This document shows, one piece after another, positions 1,859-8,159 of a stretch of 64,000 bases of DNA. Source of the stretch: Ruegeria sp. HKCCD8929 (GTDB lineage Bacteria; Pseudomonadota; Alphaproteobacteria; Rhodobacterales; Rhodobacteraceae). The first letter of the stretch is position 1. Each line of letters opens with the position of its first letter. The DNA lies in NCBI RefSeq assembly GCF_013031405.1, contig NZ_WPZY01000009.1:62001-126000 (forward strand). The letters are read 5' to 3'. The translations under genes and the position numbers were made by a program. The notes beneath the pieces are model-generated. The model was not told the DNA's origin and searched no databases. It was given only the letters and a program-made list of their open reading frames with translations.

Positions 1859-3421
1859 TCAAATCGCCTCCCACTCCAATCCGAACTTGGCCATGTACTT
1901 TCGCAACCGATCCGCGTCGTTCTGCGTTTTCCGCTTGCTGCGCGACACCGAAAACAGGGTACGCCCGGCCTCGCTCAGGCTGGAGGATTCGCGGCAGACC
2001 CGGATGACCTCGGCAAGCTGGACCAGATCGAACCGGTCGAGGTCGTTGACCCCGTCCCCCAGCACAGCGTGAACCAGCCGGAAATCGTGGTCCGCATCCG
2101 CCCGGCTCCACCCGCTGCGAAGGGCTGCGATTTCTTCGTCCACCATGGCCCGCGTGATCCGCCCCCGGGGCGCCAGAGTGCACAGCCGCCGGACCGAGGC
2201 GCTGAAATCCCGGAAGTTGCCCGGCCAGAGCGTGGCCGGGTTTTCTGCAAAGCGCAGAAACTTCTCGCGCGCGTCGGTGTTGAAGCCGACCTGAACGCCC
2301 AGGCTCTTTTCCGAGCGGACAAGCTCGAACGCCAGATTGGCCTCGATATCCTCGCGCCGGCTCCTCAGCGGCGGCAGCACGAAGCTCCACATATCAAGCC
2401 GCGCCAACAGATCGGGGCGAAACCCGCCGTCAGCGGCCAGCGCGCGCAGGTCGCGGTTGGCGCCGGCAATGACCTGAAACCGGCTGGTCACCTCATGATC
2501 GGAGCCCAACGGGTAAAAACGTCCGGTTTCCATCGCGTGCAACAGGATCGATTGGGCATTCGGGTTCAGCTCGTCCACCTCGTCCAGAAACAGGACCCCG
2601 CCATCGGCCTCGCGCAACAGCCCGCTGCGCTCGGACCCGGCCTGACCGGTATAGCTGCGGCGCTGGCCGAACAGCGATGCCAGCGCATCCGGGCCATTCA
2701 GGGTGGCGCAGTTGACATGGACCAGCCGGCCCTTGACGCGGCGGCGATCCAGTTTGAGGTTGTAGATCCGCTCGGCCAGTTCTGTCTTGCCGGTGCCGGT
2801 TTCGCCCAGCAACAGGATCGGCTCATCCGAATTGCTGGCCACCAGTTCGATCCGGTCGATCAGGGTGTTGTACGCGGCGTTTTTCGTTTCGATCCCGCCC
2901 TTCAGCTGATCGCTGTATTCGCGCGAAAGCTGATCGAACCGCTGTTGCAGCGCGTTGTACCGGCTCAGGTCCAGATCGATGATGTCGAATTTTGGCGCGT
3001 CCTCGCCAGCACCGGGCGGTCCGGTCTGGATCAGACGGGCCGGGATGTGACGGCTTTCAGTCAGCAGGAACCAGCAAATCTGCGCCACGTGCGAGCCGGT
3101 GGTCAGGTGAACGTGATAGCGCTCGCGCTCTTCATCGAACCCGTAGGTGCGCGCAAAATCGAAAAGCTTGCCATAGACCTCCTGAAAATCCCACGGATCG
3201 TCCAGATCCAGGTTCTGTAACAGAACCTCGGTATCCGGCGATGCCTCCTGAATCTCGCGCTGCACCTGCCGGGCCAGACGATGGAAATTCATGTCGTACA
3301 GAATCTCCAGCCGCTCGATCGGGAAATCGTCATGCTGGATCAGGCTGAGCGTCGGCCGCCAGCGCCGCTTTTTGCCCATATCGAGCTGCGTACCCAGAAA
3401 GCCCAGAACGACATTCTTCAT
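1859..3421 (-). CDS. rtcR: RtcR, CARF/AAA+ transcriptional regulator of RNA-repair genes
   Basis: RtcR senses RNA ends through an N-terminal CARF-like domain and activates rtc operons through a sigma-54 AAA+ domain. The start used gives MKNVVLGFLGTQLD, which aligns with known RtcR N-termini. An ATG 12 bases upstream (3433) is possible. Residue numbers here count from 3433. The CARF signature HLTTGSHVAQICWFLL lies near 109-124, Walker A GETGTGKT at 210-217 and Walker B VLFLDEVDEL at 280-289. The C-terminal NDADRLRKYMAKFGLEWEA is typical of RtcR. The L1 loop that is GAFTGA in classical activators reads RSYTGQ (259-264) and looks one residue shorter. It is divergent from the TROVE-array-RtcB operon, its expected target. 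Confidence 0.93.
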   Translation of the reverse strand: MKNVVLGFLGTQLDMGKKRRWRPTLSLIQHDDFPIERLEILYDMNFHRLARQVQREIQEASPDTEVLLQNLDLDDPWDFQEVYGKLFDFARTYGFDEERERYHVHLTTGSHVAQICWFLLTESRHIPARLIQTGPPGAGEDAPKFDIIDLDLSRYNALQQRFDQLSREYSDQLKGGIETKNAAYNTLIDRIELVASNSDEPILLLGETGTGKTELAERIYNLKLDRRRVKGRLVHVNCATLNGPDALASLFGQRRSYTGQAGSERSGLLREADGGVLFLDEVDELNPNAQSILLHAMETGRFYPLGSDHEVTSRFQVIAGANRDLRALAADGGFRPDLLARLDMWSFVLPPLRSRREDIEANLAFELVRSEKSLGVQVGFNTDAREKFLRFAENPATLWPGNFRDFSASVRRLCTLAPRGRITRAMVDEEIAALRSGWSRADADHDFRLVHAVLGDGVNDLDRFDLVQLAEVIRVCRESSSLSEAGRTLFSVSRSKRKTQNDADRLRKYMAKFGLEWEAI

Positions 3422-3433
3422 GTGTATATCCAT

Positions 3434-3462
3434 TTGGATAAGTTTGTATCTACACGTATAAT
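3434..3462 (+). promoter_or_regulatory. Candidate sigma-70-like promoter for the TROVE-array-rtcB operon
   Basis: TTGGAT (3434-3439) and TATAAT (3457-3462) are separated by 17 bases in an AT-rich intergenic region, facing the TROVE gene. The -35 box abuts the rtcR start and lies in a TATCC-ATTT-GGATA palindrome (3427-3440), which could be an operator. I found no GG-N10-GC sigma-54 element in 3434-3596. AT-rich DNA gives chance hits, so confidence is limited. Confidence 0.4.
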
Positions 3463-3486
3463 ATTTTGCAGAGCGTATTTCAGCAA
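3458..3486 (-). promoter_or_regulatory. Candidate promoter for rtcR
   Basis: Read on the minus strand, TTGCTG (complement of 3481-3486) is followed 17 bases later by TATTAT (complement of 3458-3463). This is a reasonable housekeeping promoter for rtcR. It overlaps the plus-strand candidate, so the two directions could compete. Confidence 0.35.
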
Positions 3487-3596
3487 TATCGGATTTTATG
3501 ATTTAGGAACAATGCATTAAGCGAAAAACGATTTCTTGTCGGAAACCAGGGCGTTCCATGCCAAAAACATCCTCGCTAACTAAGAGGATCAGAGAA

Positions 3597-5153
3597 ATGG
3601 CAAACAAATCCATGTTTGCATCGATTAAAGGCCGGTTGCTGCCAAAGGCAACTGCAAGGAACGCCCACGCGGCGCCGGCCTACGCCTATTCCGAAGCACA
3701 TGCCTTGGCTCAGGTTGCCGTGACCGGCACCTTCGGGGGCATGTTCTATCAGTCTCCGCAGGAGGAACTGGAATATGTCGTGGACGTGGCCGAGGCCGTC
3801 GACACGCGGTTTCTGGCCCGGGCAGCAATCTATGCGCGCAAAAGCGGGCACATGAAGGACATGCCGGCGGTGTTGCTGGCGGTTCTGGCCCGGCGCGATC
3901 CGGTGCTGTTCCGCGCCGTCTTTGATCGCGTGGTCGACAACGGCAAGATGCTGCGCACCTTTGTGCAGGTCGTCCGCTCGGGGCAGACCGGGCGCAAATC
4001 TCTGGGGTCGGCCCCGAAGGCGATGGTGCAGAACTGGCTGAACGCGGCATCCGAACGCGCGCTGCTGAACGCCAATATCGGCAACGATCCGTCCCTGGCT
4101 GACGTGATCAAGATGGTGCACCCGAAACCGGCAAGCCCGGAGCGGGAGGCGCTGTTTGCCTGGATCGTCGGGCGGCCGTGCAATCTGGCACGGCTGCCAG
4201 GGGCCCTGCAGAATTGGATCGCGTTCCGGGAGACCGGGAAAGGCCCGGTGCCGGATGTGCCGTTTCAGATGCTGACGCAGCTGGATCTGTCCGCCCATGA
4301 CTGGGCCCGGATCGCGCGCAACGGGTCGTGGCAGATGGTGCGCCAGAACCTGAACACCTTCCACCGCCACGGCGTTTTCGGCGTGGCCCGGAATGTGGAG
4401 CACGTGGCTGCCCTGCTGCGCAACCCCGAGGCCATCGCCAAGGCGCGTGCGTTTCCGTACCAGTTGATGGTGGCGGCGCAGAACGTGGCCGCGGACATGC
4501 CGCATCAGATCGTGGACGCGCTGCACGACGCGATGGAAATCGCGGTGCAGAACGTGCCGAAGATCGCGGGGCAGGTTGTCGTCTGCCCGGACGTGTCCGG
4601 CTCGATGACCTGGTCGGTGACCGGGTATCGTCCGGGCGCGACCTCGGCCGTTCGCCACGTGGACGTGGCCGCACTGACGGCGGCAGCGTTTGCGCGGGTG
4701 AACCGTGGATGTCAGGTGCTGCCGTTCGACTTCGACGTGCGCGATGTACGTCTGAGGCCGCGCGACACGATCCTGACCAATGCCGAGCGTCTGGCCGCGC
4801 TGGGCGGTGGCGGAACCAACTGTTCCGCACCGCTCAAGTGGTTGAACGGTCGCGGACGGTCGCCGGATCTGGTGGTGTTCGTGTCTGACAACCAGTCGTG
4901 GGTGGATGCCCGCACGGGCGGTCAGGCAACGGCGATGATGAAAGAATGGGAGGTGATCAAGCGTCGCAACCCGAAGGCCAGACTGGTCTGTATCGACATC
5001 GCCCCATACGGGACCACGCAGGCGCAGACCCGCGAGGACGTTCTGAATATCGGCGGGTTCTCGGATGCGGTCTTTGGCCAGATCGCGGCATTTGCCGCCG
5101 GTCGGGCCGGCCCGGATCACTGGGTCGGCGAGATCGAAAAGATCAAACTTTGA
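3597..5153 (+). CDS. rsr: TROVE/vWA-domain RNA-binding protein (bacterial Ro60, Rsr)
   Basis: This is an orthologue-type member of the Ro60 family: a ring-shaped TROVE domain that binds Y RNAs and structured or damaged RNA, followed by a von Willebrand A domain. From the start at 3597 it has 518 residues, a usual length for bacterial Rsr. The TROVE HEAT-like helices cover about residues 20-320. The vWA MIDAS motif PDVSGSMTWS begins near residue 331, and the metal-site Thr is probably in GGGGTNCSAP. The start at 3597 is preferred over the ATG at 3558 because AAGAGG lies just upstream, while 3558 has no ribosome site. The first Y-RNA-like element starts 4 bases after its stop, so protein and RNA partners are co-transcribed. 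Confidence 0.93.
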   Translation: MANKSMFASIKGRLLPKATARNAHAAPAYAYSEAHALAQVAVTGTFGGMFYQSPQEELEYVVDVAEAVDTRFLARAAIYARKSGHMKDMPAVLLAVLARRDPVLFRAVFDRVVDNGKMLRTFVQVVRSGQTGRKSLGSAPKAMVQNWLNAASERALLNANIGNDPSLADVIKMVHPKPASPEREALFAWIVGRPCNLARLPGALQNWIAFRETGKGPVPDVPFQMLTQLDLSAHDWARIARNGSWQMVRQNLNTFHRHGVFGVARNVEHVAALLRNPEAIAKARAFPYQLMVAAQNVAADMPHQIVDALHDAMEIAVQNVPKIAGQVVVCPDVSGSMTWSVTGYRPGATSAVRHVDVAALTAAAFARVNRGCQVLPFDFDVRDVRLRPRDTILTNAERLAALGGGGTNCSAPLKWLNGRGRSPDLVVFVSDNQSWVDARTGGQATAMMKEWEVIKRRNPKARLVCIDIAPYGTTQAQTREDVLNIGGFSDAVFGQIAAFAAGRAGPDHWVGEIEKIKL

Positions 5154-5157
5154 AAAC

Positions 5158-5233
5158 GGGTCAGGCGGAATGCCTGCGGGACTACAGCTGCAACCTGTCG
5201 GATGTCTCGCAAACACATTTGTCCGCCTGACCC
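5158..5233 (+). ncRNA. Y-RNA-like element Y1 (short type)
   Basis: The element is closed by a perfect 12-bp stem (5158-5169 with 5222-5233). An internal loop follows, with ATGCC on the 5' side and TTTG on the 3' side, then an upper stem TGCGGGAC/GTCTCGCA (5175-5182 with 5204-5211, one G-U). Two stems around a conserved asymmetric loop is the layout of Ro60-binding Y RNAs. GAATGCC and GACTACA recur in the other elements here. The apical part is short and has no tRNA-like module. It begins 4 bases after the TROVE stop codon. Confidence 0.75.
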
Positions 5234-5259
5234 ACCCAAGATGAGATGAAAGGAACAAA

Positions 5260-5411
5260 CTCGGCGAATGCCGGTGGAACTACAGATTGTTAATCTCCGT
5301 GTCGCGGGTTCGAATCCCGCCATCGCAGGCGCGATGTAGCTCAGTCAGGTAGAGCAGGGCGTTTCACCATGGTCGCGATTTGCGTGCAAACGCGACCGCC
5401 TTGTCGCCGGG
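5260..5411 (+). ncRNA. Y-RNA-like element Y2 (long type) with permuted tRNA(Asn)-like module
   Basis: The lower stem pairs 5260-5267 with 5404-5411 (8 bp, one U-G). The upper stem GGTGGAAC/GTTTCACC pairs 5273-5280 with 5361-5368. Inside, tRNA parts occur in circularly permuted order: an anticodon arm with loop TTGTTAA (5287-5293, anticodon GTT), a perfect T arm (GCGGG-TTCGAAT-CCCGC, 5304-5320), acceptor 3' strand CATCGC (5321-5326), an AGGC loop, acceptor 5' strand GCGATG (5331-5336), then a D arm GCTC/GAGC (5339-5342 with 5352-5355). A separate hairpin GGTCGCG/CGCGACC follows near 5371-5397. tRNA mimicry is established for bacterial Y RNAs (YrlA type). The permutation here is read directly from the sequence. 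Confidence 0.8.
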
Positions 5412-5426
5412 ACTTAATGAAACCGA

Positions 5427-5500
5427 CGAAGGTGGGCTCGTGTTGGATAGAGCGCCGCATTTGCAAGCGGTAATCGAAGGTTCGATTCCTTCATCTTCGC
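5427..5500 (+). tRNA. tRNA-like element L1, non-canonical, between Y2 and Y3
   Basis: This has a linear cloverleaf order. The acceptor CGAAGGT/ATCTTCG (5427-5433 with 5493-5499) forms 7 bp with one G-U. The D arm is GCTC/GAGC with GG in its loop. The T arm GAAGG-TTCGATT-CCTTC (5476-5492) is perfect. The anticodon arm is defective: a 4-bp stem CCGC/GCGG with an 8-base loop ATTTGCAA, one base short of the normal 17. Positions 8-9 are GG rather than TA, and no CCA is encoded. A functional Ala (TGC) or Cys (GCA) tRNA is unlikely. It could be a decoy or an RNase P/Z processing signal. Confidence 0.6.
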
Positions 5501-5502
5501 AG

Positions 5503-5597
5503 CAGGAGGAATGCCTGCGAGACTACATCTGGTGCTGCCTGTTCGATTCAGGCTCGCCCTTCGGGGTTAGAATGTCTCGCAACCGATTGTCCTCCTG
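5503..5597 (+). ncRNA. Y-RNA-like element Y3 (short type) with T-arm-like hairpin
   Basis: The lower stem CAGGAGGA/TCCTCCTG pairs 5503-5510 with 5590-5597 (8 bp). The loop again has ATGCC opposite ATTG. The upper stem TGCGAGAC/GTCTCGCA pairs 5516-5523 with 5574-5581 (8 bp). The apex holds a perfect T-arm mimic GCCTG-TTCGATT-CAGGC (5537-5553) and a CCC-TTCG-GGG tetraloop hairpin. Its flanks match Y1 closely (GGAATGCCTGCG at the 5' side, ATGTCTCGCAA at the 3' side), so Y1 and Y3 look like duplicates. Confidence 0.72.
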
Positions 5598-5616
5598 ACC
5601 CGAAACGAAAGGATAC

Positions 5617-5771
5617 CCCCGGCGAATGCCGAAGGAACTACATGGCTCAACCTGACCGGAGACCGAGCGGGTTCAACTCCCCTCCTTGCCGGCGCCCAGA
5701 CGGCAAACGCATCTGCCCATTCAGATGCGGGGCGGGTCTCCGGGTTGTTTCTTCTCCCCTTGTCGCCGGGG
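5617..5771 (+). ncRNA. Y-RNA-like element Y4 (long type)
   Basis: The lower stem CCCCGGCGA/TCGCCGGGG pairs 5617-5625 with 5763-5771 (9 bp). The upper stem GAAGGAAC/GTTTCTTC pairs 5631-5638 with 5747-5754. A third stem CCGGAGACC/GGTCTCCGG (5656-5664 with 5735-5743) closes a module with a T-arm-like GGG-TTCAACT-CCC (5669-5681), an acceptor-like TTGCCG/CGGCAA hairpin (5686-5706) and CGCATCTG/CAGATGCG (5708-5729). The GGCGAATGCCG and GGAACTACA blocks match Y2, so Y2 and Y4 appear to be duplicates. The tRNA-like content here is more decayed or remodelled. Confidence 0.7.
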
Positions 5772-5781
5772 CCAGACATGA

Positions 5782-5856
5782 TCGGTTGTAGCTCAGCTGG
5801 CAGAGCAGCGGGTTGTTACCCCGTATGTCGCAGGTTCGAGCCCTGCAACCGAGCCA
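5782..5856 (+). tRNA. tRNA(Asn)-like element L2 (anticodon GTT, encoded CCA), between Y4 and Y5
   Basis: This is a near-complete cloverleaf: acceptor TCGGTTG, T8-A9, D arm GCTC/GAGC, anticodon arm GCGGG-TTGTTAC-CCCGT (5808-5824, anticodon GTT, one G-U), a five-base variable loop ATGTC, a perfect T arm GCAGG-TTCGAGC-CCTGC (5830-5846), then AACCGA, G and an encoded CCA (5854-5856). One base is missing in the 3' acceptor strand: only 6 acceptor pairs form if the T stem keeps 5, and a seventh pair would have to borrow C5846. C38 is unusual. It may be a decoy or a processing signal rather than a decoding tRNA. If functional it would be tRNA-Asn. Confidence 0.6.
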
Positions 5857-5875
5857 GAGAAACGAAAGGAAATCA

Positions 5876-5953
5876 TCCGGGGGAATGCCCGTGGGAGTAC
5901 ATCGCTTGAAACGATCCGCCGAAAGGCCTCTCACGAACCCCTTGTCTCCCGGA
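5876..5953 (+). ncRNA. Y-RNA-like element Y5 (short type)
   Basis: The lower stem pairs 5876-5884 with 5945-5953 (9 bp, one G-U). The loop is ATGCC opposite CTTG. The upper stem CGTGGGAG/CTCTCACG pairs 5890-5897 with 5928-5935. The apex has ATCG/CGAT and a GCC-GAAA-GGC GNRA hairpin. No tRNA-like module is present. It is preceded by GAAACGAAAGGA, a linker also seen before Y4 and in a related form before Y2. Confidence 0.68.
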
Positions 5954-5960
5954 CACAAGT

Positions 5961-6010
5961 TATCACGGCGAATGCCGACGGAACTAAAGTCACCCCCTCG
6001 TTGTCGTGAC
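5961..6010 (+). ncRNA. Degenerate Y-RNA-like element Y6 just before rtcB
   Basis: The block GGCGAATGCCGACGGAACTA (5967-5986) matches the 5' part of Y2 and Y4, and TTGTC recurs on the 3' side. Only a short lower stem TCACG/CGTGA (5963-5967 with 6005-6009) forms, and the upper stem is missing. It ends 23 bases before the rtcB start, so it could instead influence rtcB translation. This is probably a truncated copy. Confidence 0.45.
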
Positions 6011-6033: not shown

Positions 6034-7449
6034 ATGAGTGAAGAAAACACATACGACCCGGTGACCGGGGACCACCTGAAAGACTGGGGCCATCGCCCCG
6101 GCAAGCATTTCCCGGCACTGCTGGCAAAAGCCAACGAGATGCGGGCCGAAGGGTTCGGGCTGGTGCGTATCCGGCAGGAGCTGGAGAGCGAAATTCCCCC
6201 CGCGCCGGTTCGGATGGAGCTGCGCGCGACCGGTGACGTTGCCTATTTCGAGAATATCGAAAGCAGCCACCCGGACGAACAGGACAACATCGGCAAGGTA
6301 CGCGAAACCATGGGCGAGCTGATGCGCACGCCCACTATCGAGGCCGGTGCCATCATGCCCGACGCCTGCCCGGCAGGTCCGGTCGGAACCATTCCGGTCG
6401 GCGGTGTGGCCGCGGCACGCAACGCCATCCATCCGGGAATGCATTCCGCCGATATCTGCTGCTCGGTGATGATCACGGATCTGGGCAATGCCGACCCCAA
6501 GGCGGTGCTGGACGCCGCGCAGTCGGTCACGCATTTCGGCCCGGGCGGCCGCCCGCAAGGCAAGCGGTTCACGACCTCGCTGAAACTGCTGGACGCGTTC
6601 CGGGAAAACCCGTTTCTGGACAATCCCAAGTCGCTGCGGATGGCGCAGGAGCATATGGGGACGCAAGGCGACGGCAACCATTTCCTGTTCGTCGGACGCT
6701 CGCGCAAGACCGGACGCACCGCGATCGTGACCCATCACGGGTCGCGTGGGCCGGGTGCTGTTCTGTATAAGCACGGGATGCATGTGGCTGAAAAGTTCCG
6801 CAAGCAGCTCTCGCCGCAAACCGCGAAACAGAATGCCTGGATCCCGACGGACACCGAAGAGGGGCGCGACTATTGGGAGGCCCTGCAACTGATCCGCAAG
6901 TGGACCAAGGCAAACCACAACGCGATCCATCAGGCGACGGTCGAGGCCGCGCGCATCGGCGATGTCGGCGACCGGTACTGGAACGAGCACAACTTCGTCT
7001 TCAAACGCGGCGATCTCTACTACCACGGCAAGGGGGCAACGCCTGCGTGGGATGACTATGCGGCGGATGCCACGGGTCTGACGCTCATCCCGCTCAACAT
7101 GTCCGAGCCGGTGCTGGTCGTGCGCGGCAAGGACGCCAGGAAAGGGCTGGGCTTCTCGCCGCACGGTGCCGGGCGCAACTTCTCGCGCTCCGAGCACAAG
7201 CGCCGGATGGGGTCGGTGACGCCCGACCAGATGCTGAAGGCCGAGACCGAGGGGCTGGATATCCGCTTTCACGCCGGTGGGGTCGACGCGTCCGAGCTGC
7301 CGTCCAGCTACAAGAGCGCGAAAAGCGTCGTGGCGCAGATAAAATCCTACGATCTGGCCGAGATCGAGGATTACATCGACCCCTATGGGTGCATCATGGC
7401 GGGCGATGTCCCTCCGTTCTGGGCGAACAAGAGGAAGGGGCGGCGCTGA
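6034..7449 (+). CDS. rtcB: RtcB-family RNA ligase
   Basis: RtcB joins RNA 2',3'-cyclic-phosphate or 3'-phosphate ends to 5'-OH ends using GTP and Mn2+. This 471-residue protein keeps the expected ligands. They are the Cys of DICCS (about 143, where most RtcB have DIGCG), the His of GDGNHF (216), the His of THHGSRG (234), the His of NEHNF (319) and the guanylylated His of HGAGRNFSR (377). The DICCS variant and the overall divergence suggest a distinct RtcB subgroup. No RtcA cyclase or archease gene is in the window. It is the last gene of the TROVE-Y-RNA operon and starts 23 bases after the degenerate Y6. The likely job is sealing cleaved tRNAs or the co-encoded RNAs. Confidence 0.92.
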   Translation: MSEENTYDPVTGDHLKDWGHRPGKHFPALLAKANEMRAEGFGLVRIRQELESEIPPAPVRMELRATGDVAYFENIESSHPDEQDNIGKVRETMGELMRTPTIEAGAIMPDACPAGPVGTIPVGGVAAARNAIHPGMHSADICCSVMITDLGNADPKAVLDAAQSVTHFGPGGRPQGKRFTTSLKLLDAFRENPFLDNPKSLRMAQEHMGTQGDGNHFLFVGRSRKTGRTAIVTHHGSRGPGAVLYKHGMHVAEKFRKQLSPQTAKQNAWIPTDTEEGRDYWEALQLIRKWTKANHNAIHQATVEAARIGDVGDRYWNEHNFVFKRGDLYYHGKGATPAWDDYAADATGLTLIPLNMSEPVLVVRGKDARKGLGFSPHGAGRNFSRSEHKRRMGSVTPDQMLKAETEGLDIRFHAGGVDASELPSSYKSAKSVVAQIKSYDLAEIEDYIDPYGCIMAGDVPPFWANKRKGRR

Positions 7450-7513: not shown

Positions 7514-8159
7514 AGAACTCCGCGTCCGCCCGGAACTTCATCGAGATGCCGCCATCGGGATGTTTCAGCCGCAATTCCTCGGAATGCAGCATCAGGCGGG
7601 GAAAATCGCGCGCGGCGCCCTCCGCATAGAACGGGTCGCCCAGGATCGGATGGCCCAGCGCCTGCATGTGCACCCGCAACTGGTGCGAGCGTCCGGTCCT
7701 CGGGCTGAGCCGGACGCGGGTGGTACCATTCTCATAGCGCTGCACCCGCCATTCGGTCACCGCCGGTTTGCCGGTCTCGTGACAGACCATCTGCCGGGGC
7801 CGGTTCGGCCAGTCCACGATCAGCGGCAGGTCGACGGTGCCGGTCTTGGGCTCAAGCCGTCCCCAGACACGGGCGACATAGGTCTTCCGGGTCTGCCGCT
7901 TCTCGAATTGCAGCCCAAGATGGCGCTGCGCGTGGGGGGTCTGGGCAAAGACCATCACGCCGGACGTGTCCCGGTCGAGCCGATGCACCAGCAGCGCCTG
8001 CGGGAACGCCGCCTGCACCCGGGCCAGCAGGCAATCGGCCAGATGCGCCCCCCGCCCCGGCACCGACAACAGGCCCGAGGGTTTGTTCACCACGATCAGC
8101 TGCGCATCCTCGTGCAGCACATCCAGCGGCGTTTGCGGGGGATCATAGGTCTCGCTCAT
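7512..8159 (-). CDS. RluA-family pseudouridine synthase
   Basis: This 215-residue enzyme belongs to the RluA/RsuA pseudouridine synthases, which convert specific uridines in rRNA or tRNA. The catalytic block HRLDRDTSGVMVFA carries the essential Asp. The RTGRSHQLRVHMQALGHPILGD block is typical of the RluA branch. There is no S4 domain, so it matches the short RluA type (dual 23S rRNA/tRNA specificity in E. coli). The exact target cannot be told from sequence. The start at MSETYD was chosen because upstream residues are low-complexity Arg-rich and a GGCAGG lies nearby. It is convergent with rtcB, so the proximity of another RNA enzyme may be coincidence. Confidence 0.87.
   Translation of the reverse strand: MSETYDPPQTPLDVLHEDAQLIVVNKPSGLLSVPGRGAHLADCLLARVQAAFPQALLVHRLDRDTSGVMVFAQTPHAQRHLGLQFEKRQTRKTYVARVWGRLEPKTGTVDLPLIVDWPNRPRQMVCHETGKPAVTEWRVQRYENGTTRVRLSPRTGRSHQLRVHMQALGHPILGDPFYAEGAARDFPRLMLHSEELRLKHPDGGISMKFRADAEF

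What the first reader, a model, noticed from the sequence alone, without database searches (positions are those of the whole stretch)
5158..6010. Expanded Y-RNA/tRNA-like array inside a TROVE-RtcB operon
Between the TROVE gene and rtcB lie 850 bases with no plausible protein. Hand-folding shows six elements with the same plan (lower stem, ATGCC/TTG asymmetric loop, upper stem) plus two tRNA-like cloverleaves. Bacterial Y RNAs next to rsr and rtc genes are known, usually one or two per locus. An array this large, alternating with tRNA-like units and bounded by RtcR and RtcB, suggests a dedicated RNA-repair or RNA-quality system whose substrates and guides are co-encoded. That the elements are transcribed, bind the TROVE protein and are processed is inference.
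Basis: partly seen in the sequence, partly recalled or inferred. Interest (0 to 1): 0.95.

Follow-up and report, generated by a model that had tools for sequence, protein, structure and literature searches.

The report
Y-RNA and tRNA cassette, RNA-repair operon
Between the Ro60-like gene and the RNA-ligase gene of a bacterial RNA-repair operon lies a conserved string of small Y RNAs, in many relatives interleaved with tRNA genes, which suggests that the operon makes its own tRNA look-alikes and spare tRNAs when tRNAs are damaged.

Summary
Window 5158-6009, between the TROVE/Rsr gene and rtcB, holds five intact Y RNAs, a sixth cut short, an Asn-type tRNA gene and a decayed Pro-type tRNA. It is not unusually expanded: in 80 named relatives the interval carries a median of 4 Y RNAs, 302 elements in all with the window and 0 antisense. 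Two Y-RNA classes show strong covariation: Rfam YrlA, whose head is a tRNA cut open at the anticodon arm, and a class without Rfam match in the loci scanned, whose head is a tRNA cut open in the D-loop (relatives only). tRNA genes lie outside the Y elements in 43 of 81 loci; 63 of 66 are Asn-GUU, Gln-UUG, Lys-U/CUU or Pro-U/CGG, all sense strand. Identity positions are mostly kept. All 14 distinct Pro have A37; every native tRNA-Pro examined has G37; a Rhodobacter phage tRNA-Pro has A37. Best reading: a known kind of operon (RtcR-Rsr-Y RNA-RtcB) in a variant with spare tRNAs and two permutations of tRNA-mimic Y RNA. Transcription and function are inferred.

The parts
1859..3433 (-). RtcR, CARF-AAA+ activator, divergent from the operon; lacks the GAFTGA motif
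   Evidence: PF06956 245.8 bits; NF038308 679 bits over cut-off 650; SYTGQA in place of GAFTGA
3434..3557 (.). intergenic promoter region; no sigma-54 -24/-12 site above the shuffle level
   Evidence: best score 7 of 12, mean of 20 shuffles 7.1
3558..5153 (+). TROVE / Ro60-like (Rsr) protein
   Evidence: PF25045 vWA_Ro60 and PF05731 TROVE; aligns with Deinococcus Rsr 2nvo over residues 31-516, E 4.3e-17
5158..5233 (+). Y RNA 1, short class A (76 nt)
   Evidence: parser; model R1 38.5 bits at 5163-5228; folds at -38.2 kcal/mol
5260..5411 (+). Y RNA 2, YrlA type: tRNA-like head cut at the anticodon arm, plus an extra hairpin before TTG
   Evidence: Rfam RF02553 66.6 bits, gathering 69; covariation of alignment A3, which includes this element
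5428..5500 (+). degraded tRNA; by similarity a decayed copy of the array tRNA-Pro of relatives
   Evidence: RF00005 26.1 bits, below cut-off; the six nearest array tRNAs are all Pro
5503..5597 (+). Y RNA 3, class A with a T-arm-like hairpin
   Evidence: RF02553 43.1 bits, below gathering; R1 36.4 bits
5617..5771 (+). Y RNA 4, class C, 155 nt, with T-arm-like hairpin and further hairpins
   Evidence: parser; one class C element in each of 47 of 81 loci; MFE fold
5782..5856 (+). tRNA-Asn(GUU)-type gene with encoded CCA; one nucleotide short at the acceptor/T-stem junction
   Evidence: ARAGORN; RF00005 53.7 bits; alignment A4
5876..5953 (+). Y RNA 5, class D (78 nt)
   Evidence: parser; class D in 20 of 81 loci; R1 36.8 bits
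5963..6009 (+). truncated Y RNA: lower stem and ATGCC...TTG kept, head lost
   Evidence: sequence reading against L090 8306-8433; fold
6034..7449 (+). divergent RtcB RNA ligase
   Evidence: PF01139 121.4 bits; phmmer alignment to P. horikoshii RtcB 1uc2/4dwr

Best explanation
This is the non-coding half of an RtcR-Rsr-RtcB RNA-repair operon. One transcript carries rsr, a string of Y RNAs and tRNAs, and rtcB. The Y RNAs bind the TROVE/Rsr ring through the conserved ATGCC/TTG lower stem. Many of the heads are tRNA-elbow mimics with a closed acceptor stem: YrlA types are cut at the anticodon arm, and in relatives others are cut in the D-loop. They tether or compete for proteins that recognise the tRNA elbow. 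The interleaved tRNAs are spare, chargeable copies of Asn, Gln, Lys and Pro tRNAs. They top up decoding when chromosomal tRNAs are cut, while RtcB reseals the halves, and processing at the tRNA ends helps release the Y RNAs. Shown here: anatomy, conservation, covariation, isotype restriction, identity positions. Inferred: co-transcription, binding, induction by tRNA damage (shown by others in Salmonella, PMC7790460), supply function. In this window both tRNAs are partly decayed, so here the spare-tRNA role may be weak or lost.
For: RtcR lies divergently upstream of TROVE in 80 of 80 named loci; 57 of the 80 have a same-type RtcB (over 50% identity, aligned from near its start) behind a 388-3056 nt gap holding 2-8 Y RNAs. 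Y elements occur at 3.05 per kb in the gaps, 0 antisense, against 0.03 per kb in flanks. Model R1 gives 271 matches in 91 sources; by eye all lie on TROVE's strand downstream of it, and before RtcB where one is held, the L160 interval being uncertain. Covariation: D-loop-cut class, 26 of 35 pairs with changes on both sides (13 of 21 within the head); YrlA class, 20 of 33; array tRNAs, 15 of 21. For all three the covariation score exceeds all 500 shuffles and every slid control. tRNA genes: 66 in 98.9 kb of gaps against 10 in 840 kb of flanks. Identity positions (recalled as such) among 58 distinct array tRNAs: Asn GUU and G73 20/20; Gln U1-A72, G2-C71, G3-C70 13/13; Pro C1-G72 13/14 and A73 14/14. 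Native Asn genes exist elsewhere in 13 of 13 relatives tested, so array copies are extra. Pro A37 is shared with a phage of a related host. Precedent: in Anabaena one repressor, TrcR, controls a 26-gene tRNA operon and rtcB, relieved by translational stress (PMC10272220, passages; abstract start).
Against: No transcript or binding data. The anticodon loops of array Asn, Lys and Gln tRNAs mostly equal the native ones of G000, so only Pro hints at nuclease evasion. 3 of 14 distinct Pro have C33, 4 of 13 Gln have A73, 2 of 11 Lys have T73, and 10 of 11 Lys have a C2-A71 mismatch, odd for translating tRNAs. L162 has a Gln-like body with a defective anticodon loop. 38 of 81 loci show no such tRNA, and ARAGORN found none downstream of TROVE in the 8 more distant loci. 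Only 107 of 303 Y elements were classed as permuted tRNA by motif; 74 more have just a T-arm motif and 122 neither. The measure 'further pair types' does not exceed shuffles for the D-loop-cut class (360/500 as high) or the tRNAs (255/500). The tRNA covariation mixes four isotypes, so part of it is older than the array; two-sided changes also occur within isotypes. In Salmonella YrlA was not cut, and a competitor role was only suggested (PMC7790460).
Confidence: 0.48

Rival explanations
1. Decoy or sink: array tRNAs and tRNA-mimic Y RNAs soak up tRNA-cutting nucleases (or feed RtcR with cut halves as an amplifier) rather than serve translation.
For: Asn, Lys and Gln anticodon loops mostly equal the native ones, so they should be cut equally; C33 in some Pro and a broken anticodon loop in L162; Hughes et al. 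suggest YrlA as a competitive inhibitor of the nuclease (PMC7790460, passage).
Against: Charging-identity positions and encoded CCA are mostly kept, which a decoy for an anticodon nuclease need not have. The YrlA and D-loop-cut heads that I read carry no ordinary anticodon arm.
Confidence: 0.2
2. Punctuation: the tRNAs are only processing signals that let RNase P and tRNase Z cut Y RNAs out of the long transcript.
For: tRNAs lie beside or between Y RNAs, always on the sense strand, some within a few nucleotides of a Y element.
Against: Only four isotypes recur and identity positions are mostly kept, which punctuation does not need; many loci have Y arrays without such tRNAs.
Confidence: 0.18
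3. Relic of mobile or phage tRNA genes caught in a long non-coding gap and kept by descent, without a role in repair.
For: The Rhodobacter phage RcXuper tRNA-Pro is 81% alike and shares A37; the window copies are decaying.
Against: Stem pairs change on both sides also within isotypes, for example Gln acceptor and Asn T-stem, and 63 of 66 ARAGORN tRNAs keep CCA, which a relic would not keep; Asn and Gln types persist across genera.
Confidence: 0.12

Closest known systems
rsr-yrlBA-rtcBA RNA repair operon of Salmonella (Hughes et al. 2020, PMC7790460; passages read)
   Same: Rsr, Y RNAs with tRNA-like head and RtcB, with RtcR encoded alongside
   Different: Here no RtcA (0 of 13 genomes), usually more Y RNAs, tRNA genes, a divergent RtcB, and an RtcR without GAFTGA
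YrlA RNA, Rfam RF02553 (structure 6CU1; described as a circular permutation of tRNA in PMC11472068, passages read)
   Same: The class B head, including window 5260-5411, is of this type; it exceeds the Rfam gathering score at 13 places in 9 of 11 loci scanned
   Different: The D-loop-cut class of relatives opens the tRNA at a different place; RF02553 gave no gathering-level match to it in the 11 loci scanned
Anabaena trn operon co-regulated with rtcB by TrcR (PMC10272220; passages and abstract start read)
   Same: Stress-inducible spare tRNAs regulated together with an RNA ligase
   Different: There 26 genes on a megaplasmid, rtcB at another locus, a different regulator, and no RtcR
Phage-borne tRNAs proposed to evade anticodon nucleases (van den Berg et al. 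2023, PMC10264068; passages read)
   Same: Extra tRNAs that supplement host ones; altered anticodon loop in the Pro type
   Different: Carried by bacterial genomes, inside a repair operon; Asn, Lys and Gln loops mostly unaltered
Band-7/SPFH-RtcB systems with a tRNA-like RNA (Burroughs and Aravind 2016; recalled, paper not held)
   Same: RtcB neighbourhood with a tRNA-like RNA
   Different: In the window only TROVE lies between RtcR and RtcB; the scaffold is TROVE with Y RNAs

Membership tests
Bacterial Y RNA | terminal stem with conserved ATGCC opposite TTG, next to an rsr gene | tested here: met
   five elements in the window; TTG in 301 of 303 elements although the parser required only TG
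Bacterial Y RNA | binds Rsr | not testable with these tools
   needs CLIP or gel shift
YrlA (RF02553) | covariance-model score at or above gathering (69 bits) | tested here: inconclusive
   window best 66.6 bits; homologues in L090, L095, L101, L115, L118, L126, L127, L130 and L140 exceed 69
tRNA (RF00005) | score at or above 29 bits | tested here: met
   5782-5853 scores 53.7; 5428-5499 scores 26.1 and fails
RtcR-controlled RNA repair operon | divergent RtcR with CARF domain | tested here: met
   NF038308 over cut-off
RtcR-controlled RNA repair operon | sigma-54 promoter and GAFTGA motif | tested here: not met
   absent in the window; present together in 12 loci, L160 and L169 with GSFTGA
RtcR-controlled RNA repair operon | RtcA cyclase present | tested here: not met
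   PF01137 in 0 of 13 genomes including G000; E. coli control rings
Ro60/Rsr | TROVE plus vWA, aligns with Rsr structure | tested here: met
   NCBIfam Rsr model only 73.5 bits, far below its 900 cut-off
RtcB ligase | catalytic Cys and the HGAGR His | tested here: met
   alignment with 1uc2/4dwr shows DICC and HGAGR; roles of the residues recalled; the N-terminal piece scores only 2.3 bits

The most novel reading that the evidence does not exclude
Rhodobacterales RNA-repair operons carry an emergency kit: spare tRNAs for Asn, Gln, Lys and Pro, the Pro copy bearing a phage-like A37 that may dodge anticodon nucleases or m1G37-dependent recognition, plus a family of Ro60-bound tRNA-elbow mimics made by two different circular permutations (cut at the anticodon arm or in the D-loop), all placed behind a tRNA-damage sensor that no longer uses sigma-54.
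Probability: 0.35. Interest if true: 0.86.

Novelty: new variant of a known kind. Interest (0 to 1): 0.74.

Why it matters
The roles of bacterial Y RNAs and of Rsr in RNA-repair operons are open. A conserved cassette that combines Y RNAs with restricted tRNA isotypes points to particular tRNAs (Asn, Gln, Lys, Pro) as the ones under attack, which can be tested directly. Two different permutations that both keep the tRNA elbow suggest that the elbow is the functional surface of these RNAs.

Tried and rejected
Rejected: chance folding (shuffles, antisense and flank controls). Rejected without a test: protein-coding content; the 103-aa minus-strand ORF 5647-5958 lies across Y 4, tRNA-Asn and Y 5 and was not pursued. 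Rejected: a sigma-54 promoter for the window. Rejected: array tRNAs being the only copies; native Asn present in 13 of 13 relatives. My notes called 5428-5500 a decayed Lys slot; one search shows Pro types are nearest, so I changed that. Phage origin of the tRNAs: the best listed rows are 79-88% identical; 20 of 380 records for Asn reach 90-95%; left open. A relaxed ARAGORN run listed many doubtful tRNAs and was not used. Not done: structure prediction. Key papers (Chen 2014, Sim and Wolin 2018, Sim 2020, Wang 2018, Burroughs and Aravind 2016) are not held, so whether multi-Y arrays, D-loop-cut Y RNAs or tRNAs in such operons are already in print cannot be settled; in the searches I saw none by title, abstract start or the passages read, which is not the same as reading the papers.

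Full report
What is there. The window comes from a genome in a family where 25 of 394 genomes searched hold the TROVE gene, the window's own among them and one match weak. Named relatives are mostly Rhodobacterales by title. The order is RtcR (minus strand), TROVE, an interval of 880 nt, then RtcB. The interval holds five complete Y RNAs, one truncated Y RNA, a tRNA-Asn type gene and a decayed tRNA. My stem parser looks for ATGC(N) or similar, a lower stem, TG, and an upper stem. It finds 6 hits in the window interval, one an overlapping duplicate, against a mean of 0.42 (maximum 3) in 200 dinucleotide shuffles.

Conservation. RtcR is divergent and upstream in 80 of 80. With the window, these loci hold 302 Y elements in 98.9 kb of interval (3.05 per kb), 0 on the antisense strand of those intervals, and 51 in 1.68 Mb (both strands) of flanks (0.03 per kb). 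Where no RtcB was in reach, 3.5 kb downstream was taken. Five loci scored zero; for three of them (L160, L162, L168) a 3.5 kb stretch at a lower threshold did show elements, L148 gave one weak hit and L151 none. Y RNAs per locus: median 4, maximum 8. Several loci are close relatives (for example L099/L100, L133/L147, L142/L143), so counts are not independent. Two plasmid-borne operons (Rhizobium, Methylosinus) have R1 matches too.

Two kinds of tRNA mimicry. Class B, including window 5260-5411, is YrlA: the head is a tRNA whose chain begins and ends in the anticodon arm, with the acceptor stem closed by a loop. Rfam YrlA exceeds its cut-off at 13 places in 9 of 11 loci scanned, while the window copy is just below it. 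A published comparison describes bacterial Y RNA 6CU1 as a circular permutation of tRNA (PMC11472068, passages). A second class, found in relatives but not in this window, runs D-arm 3' strand, anticodon-arm hairpin, variable arm, T-arm, acceptor stem closed by a small loop, then D-arm 5' strand (for example L095 7706-7843). It is a tRNA opened in the D-loop. By motif, 14 of 303 elements are strict D-loop-cut cases and 93 are anticodon-cut; 74 others have only a T-arm motif and 122 neither. Sixteen D-loop-cut elements were aligned: 13 of the 14, leaving out L100, plus L139, L149 and L157. 26 of 35 pairs change on both sides, 13 of them in the lower and upper Y stems and 13 of 21 in the head; covariation score 0.485 against 0.229 in shuffles and at most 0.134 in slid controls. 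The acceptor hairpin varies in 5 of 5 pairs and the T-stem in 2 of 5; the D-stem never varies, so it has no covariation support; the anticodon-arm and variable-arm columns are poorly aligned, mostly 60-69% paired. 'Further pair types' did not exceed shuffles. The GG that would be G18-G19 and the TTC of the T-loop are invariant. For YrlA, 20 of 33 pairs change on both sides, 0.318 against 0.132 (20 sequences that I chose from many). A covariance model from the D-loop-cut class gives 271 matches at E of 0.05 or less in 91 sources, including the window at 5163-5228, 5504-5596 and 5878-5951; most of these are Y RNAs of other classes matched through the shared stems. By eye all lie on TROVE's strand downstream of it, and before RtcB where one is held. 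In 190 whole genomes of the class it matched 12; several of those are weak and were not followed.

The tRNAs. ARAGORN at default finds 66 tRNAs in the intervals of window plus 80 loci, all on the sense strand: Asn-GUU 20, Gln-UUG 15, Pro-UGG 11, Pro-CGG 4, Lys-UUU 10, Lys-CUU 3, and three odd ones. 43 of 81 loci have at least one of the four isotypes. Rfam shows at least one more that ARAGORN missed (L140 7637-7709). The flanks of the same loci hold 10 in 840 kb. None was found by ARAGORN downstream of TROVE in the 8 more distant loci. Among 58 distinct sequences the cloverleaf shows changes on both sides in 15 of 21 pairs, score 0.665 against 0.147; 'further pair types' did not exceed shuffles, and the set mixes isotypes, though two-sided changes are seen within isotypes too. 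The positions that I recall as charging identity elements are largely kept: Asn GUU with G73 20 of 20; Gln U1-A72, G2-C71, G3-C70 13 of 13 but G73 only 9 of 13; Pro C1-G72 13 of 14 with A73 14 of 14; Lys A73 9 of 11. Oddities: C2-A71 mismatch in 10 of 11 Lys; C33 in 3 of 14 Pro; A37 in 14 of 14 Pro. Native tRNA-Pro has G37 in all 3 isoacceptors of the window genome and in 9 of 9 Pro genes read from 6 relatives; these were found by similarity to the window genome's own tRNA-Pro(UGG), which may favour alike genes. Of four phage tRNA-Pro read, Rhodobacter phage RcXuper has A37; two Acinetobacter phages and one Synechococcus phage have G37. Native tRNA-Asn genes exist elsewhere in 13 of 13 relatives, 11 of 13 identical to each other, while the array Asn genes differ from them. 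So the array tRNAs are extra copies. In the window the Asn gene is one nucleotide short and the other tRNA fails the Rfam threshold, its nearest relatives being array Pro tRNAs.

Regulation. In Salmonella, RtcR binds 5' tRNA halves ending in cyclic phosphate and switches on rsr-yrlBA-rtcBA (PMC7790460, passages). In the loci examined here a sigma-54 type site upstream of TROVE goes with a GAFTGA or GSFTGA motif in RtcR in 12 loci: scores 9-12 of 12, 11 of the 12 at 10 or more, L161 at 9 being within its shuffle range. In the other loci and the window GAFTGA is absent and the best site scores 6-9, nearly always within the range of 20 shuffles (L113 scored 9 against a shuffle maximum of 8); RtcR of L142 and L143 is cut by the contig end and says little. 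rpoN (PF04552) is found in only 5 of 13 carriers, the window genome among them, and RtcA in 0 of 13. The sensor in this lineage therefore probably works with another sigma factor, as recalled for Rhodobacter NtrC.

Mechanism, with steps marked. Shown: arrangement, conservation, covariation, isotypes, extra copies. Inferred: one transcript; processing; Y RNAs on the TROVE ring; elbow mimicry recruiting or blocking a tRNA-binding protein; spare tRNAs replenishing those destroyed; RtcB resealing. The closest precedent for spare tRNAs with an RNA ligase is Anabaena (PMC10272220), and for altered extra tRNAs it is phages (PMC10264068).

Limits. No expression or binding data; the 80 loci are those nearest the query; key Y-RNA papers are not held, so priority cannot be judged.

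Noticed in passing
window 1859-3433 and RtcR of the named loci: RtcR of the Rhodobacterales type lacks the sigma-54-contacting GAFTGA loop and the operon lacks a sigma-54 site; 8 of 13 carriers tested have no rpoN match. Suggests a switch of sigma factor.
   Followed up: partly
window 6034-7449: RtcB is a divergent subfamily far below the NCBIfam RtcB cut-offs; no RtcA in 13 of 13 carrier genomes tested.
   Followed up: partly
L162 7324-7396: tRNA with Gln-like acceptor and CCA but a defective anticodon arm, next to a second odd tRNA and a tRNA-Pro: possible non-decoding tRNA.
   Followed up: no
phages collection, e.g. Myxococcus phage Mx1 OR576727 56915-58561: TROVE homologue 44% identical over 98% of the query in a phage; 118 phage records match the window TROVE protein.
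   Followed up: no
L208 (Rhodobacter phage RcXuper 1580-1656): Phage tRNA-Pro(CGG) with A37, 81% alike to an array tRNA-Pro.
   Followed up: partly
window 5371-5397 and L102 about 7578-7605: Extra strong hairpin inserted between the upper stem and TTG of a YrlA-type Y RNA; the last Y RNA of L102 seems to have one too.
   Followed up: no
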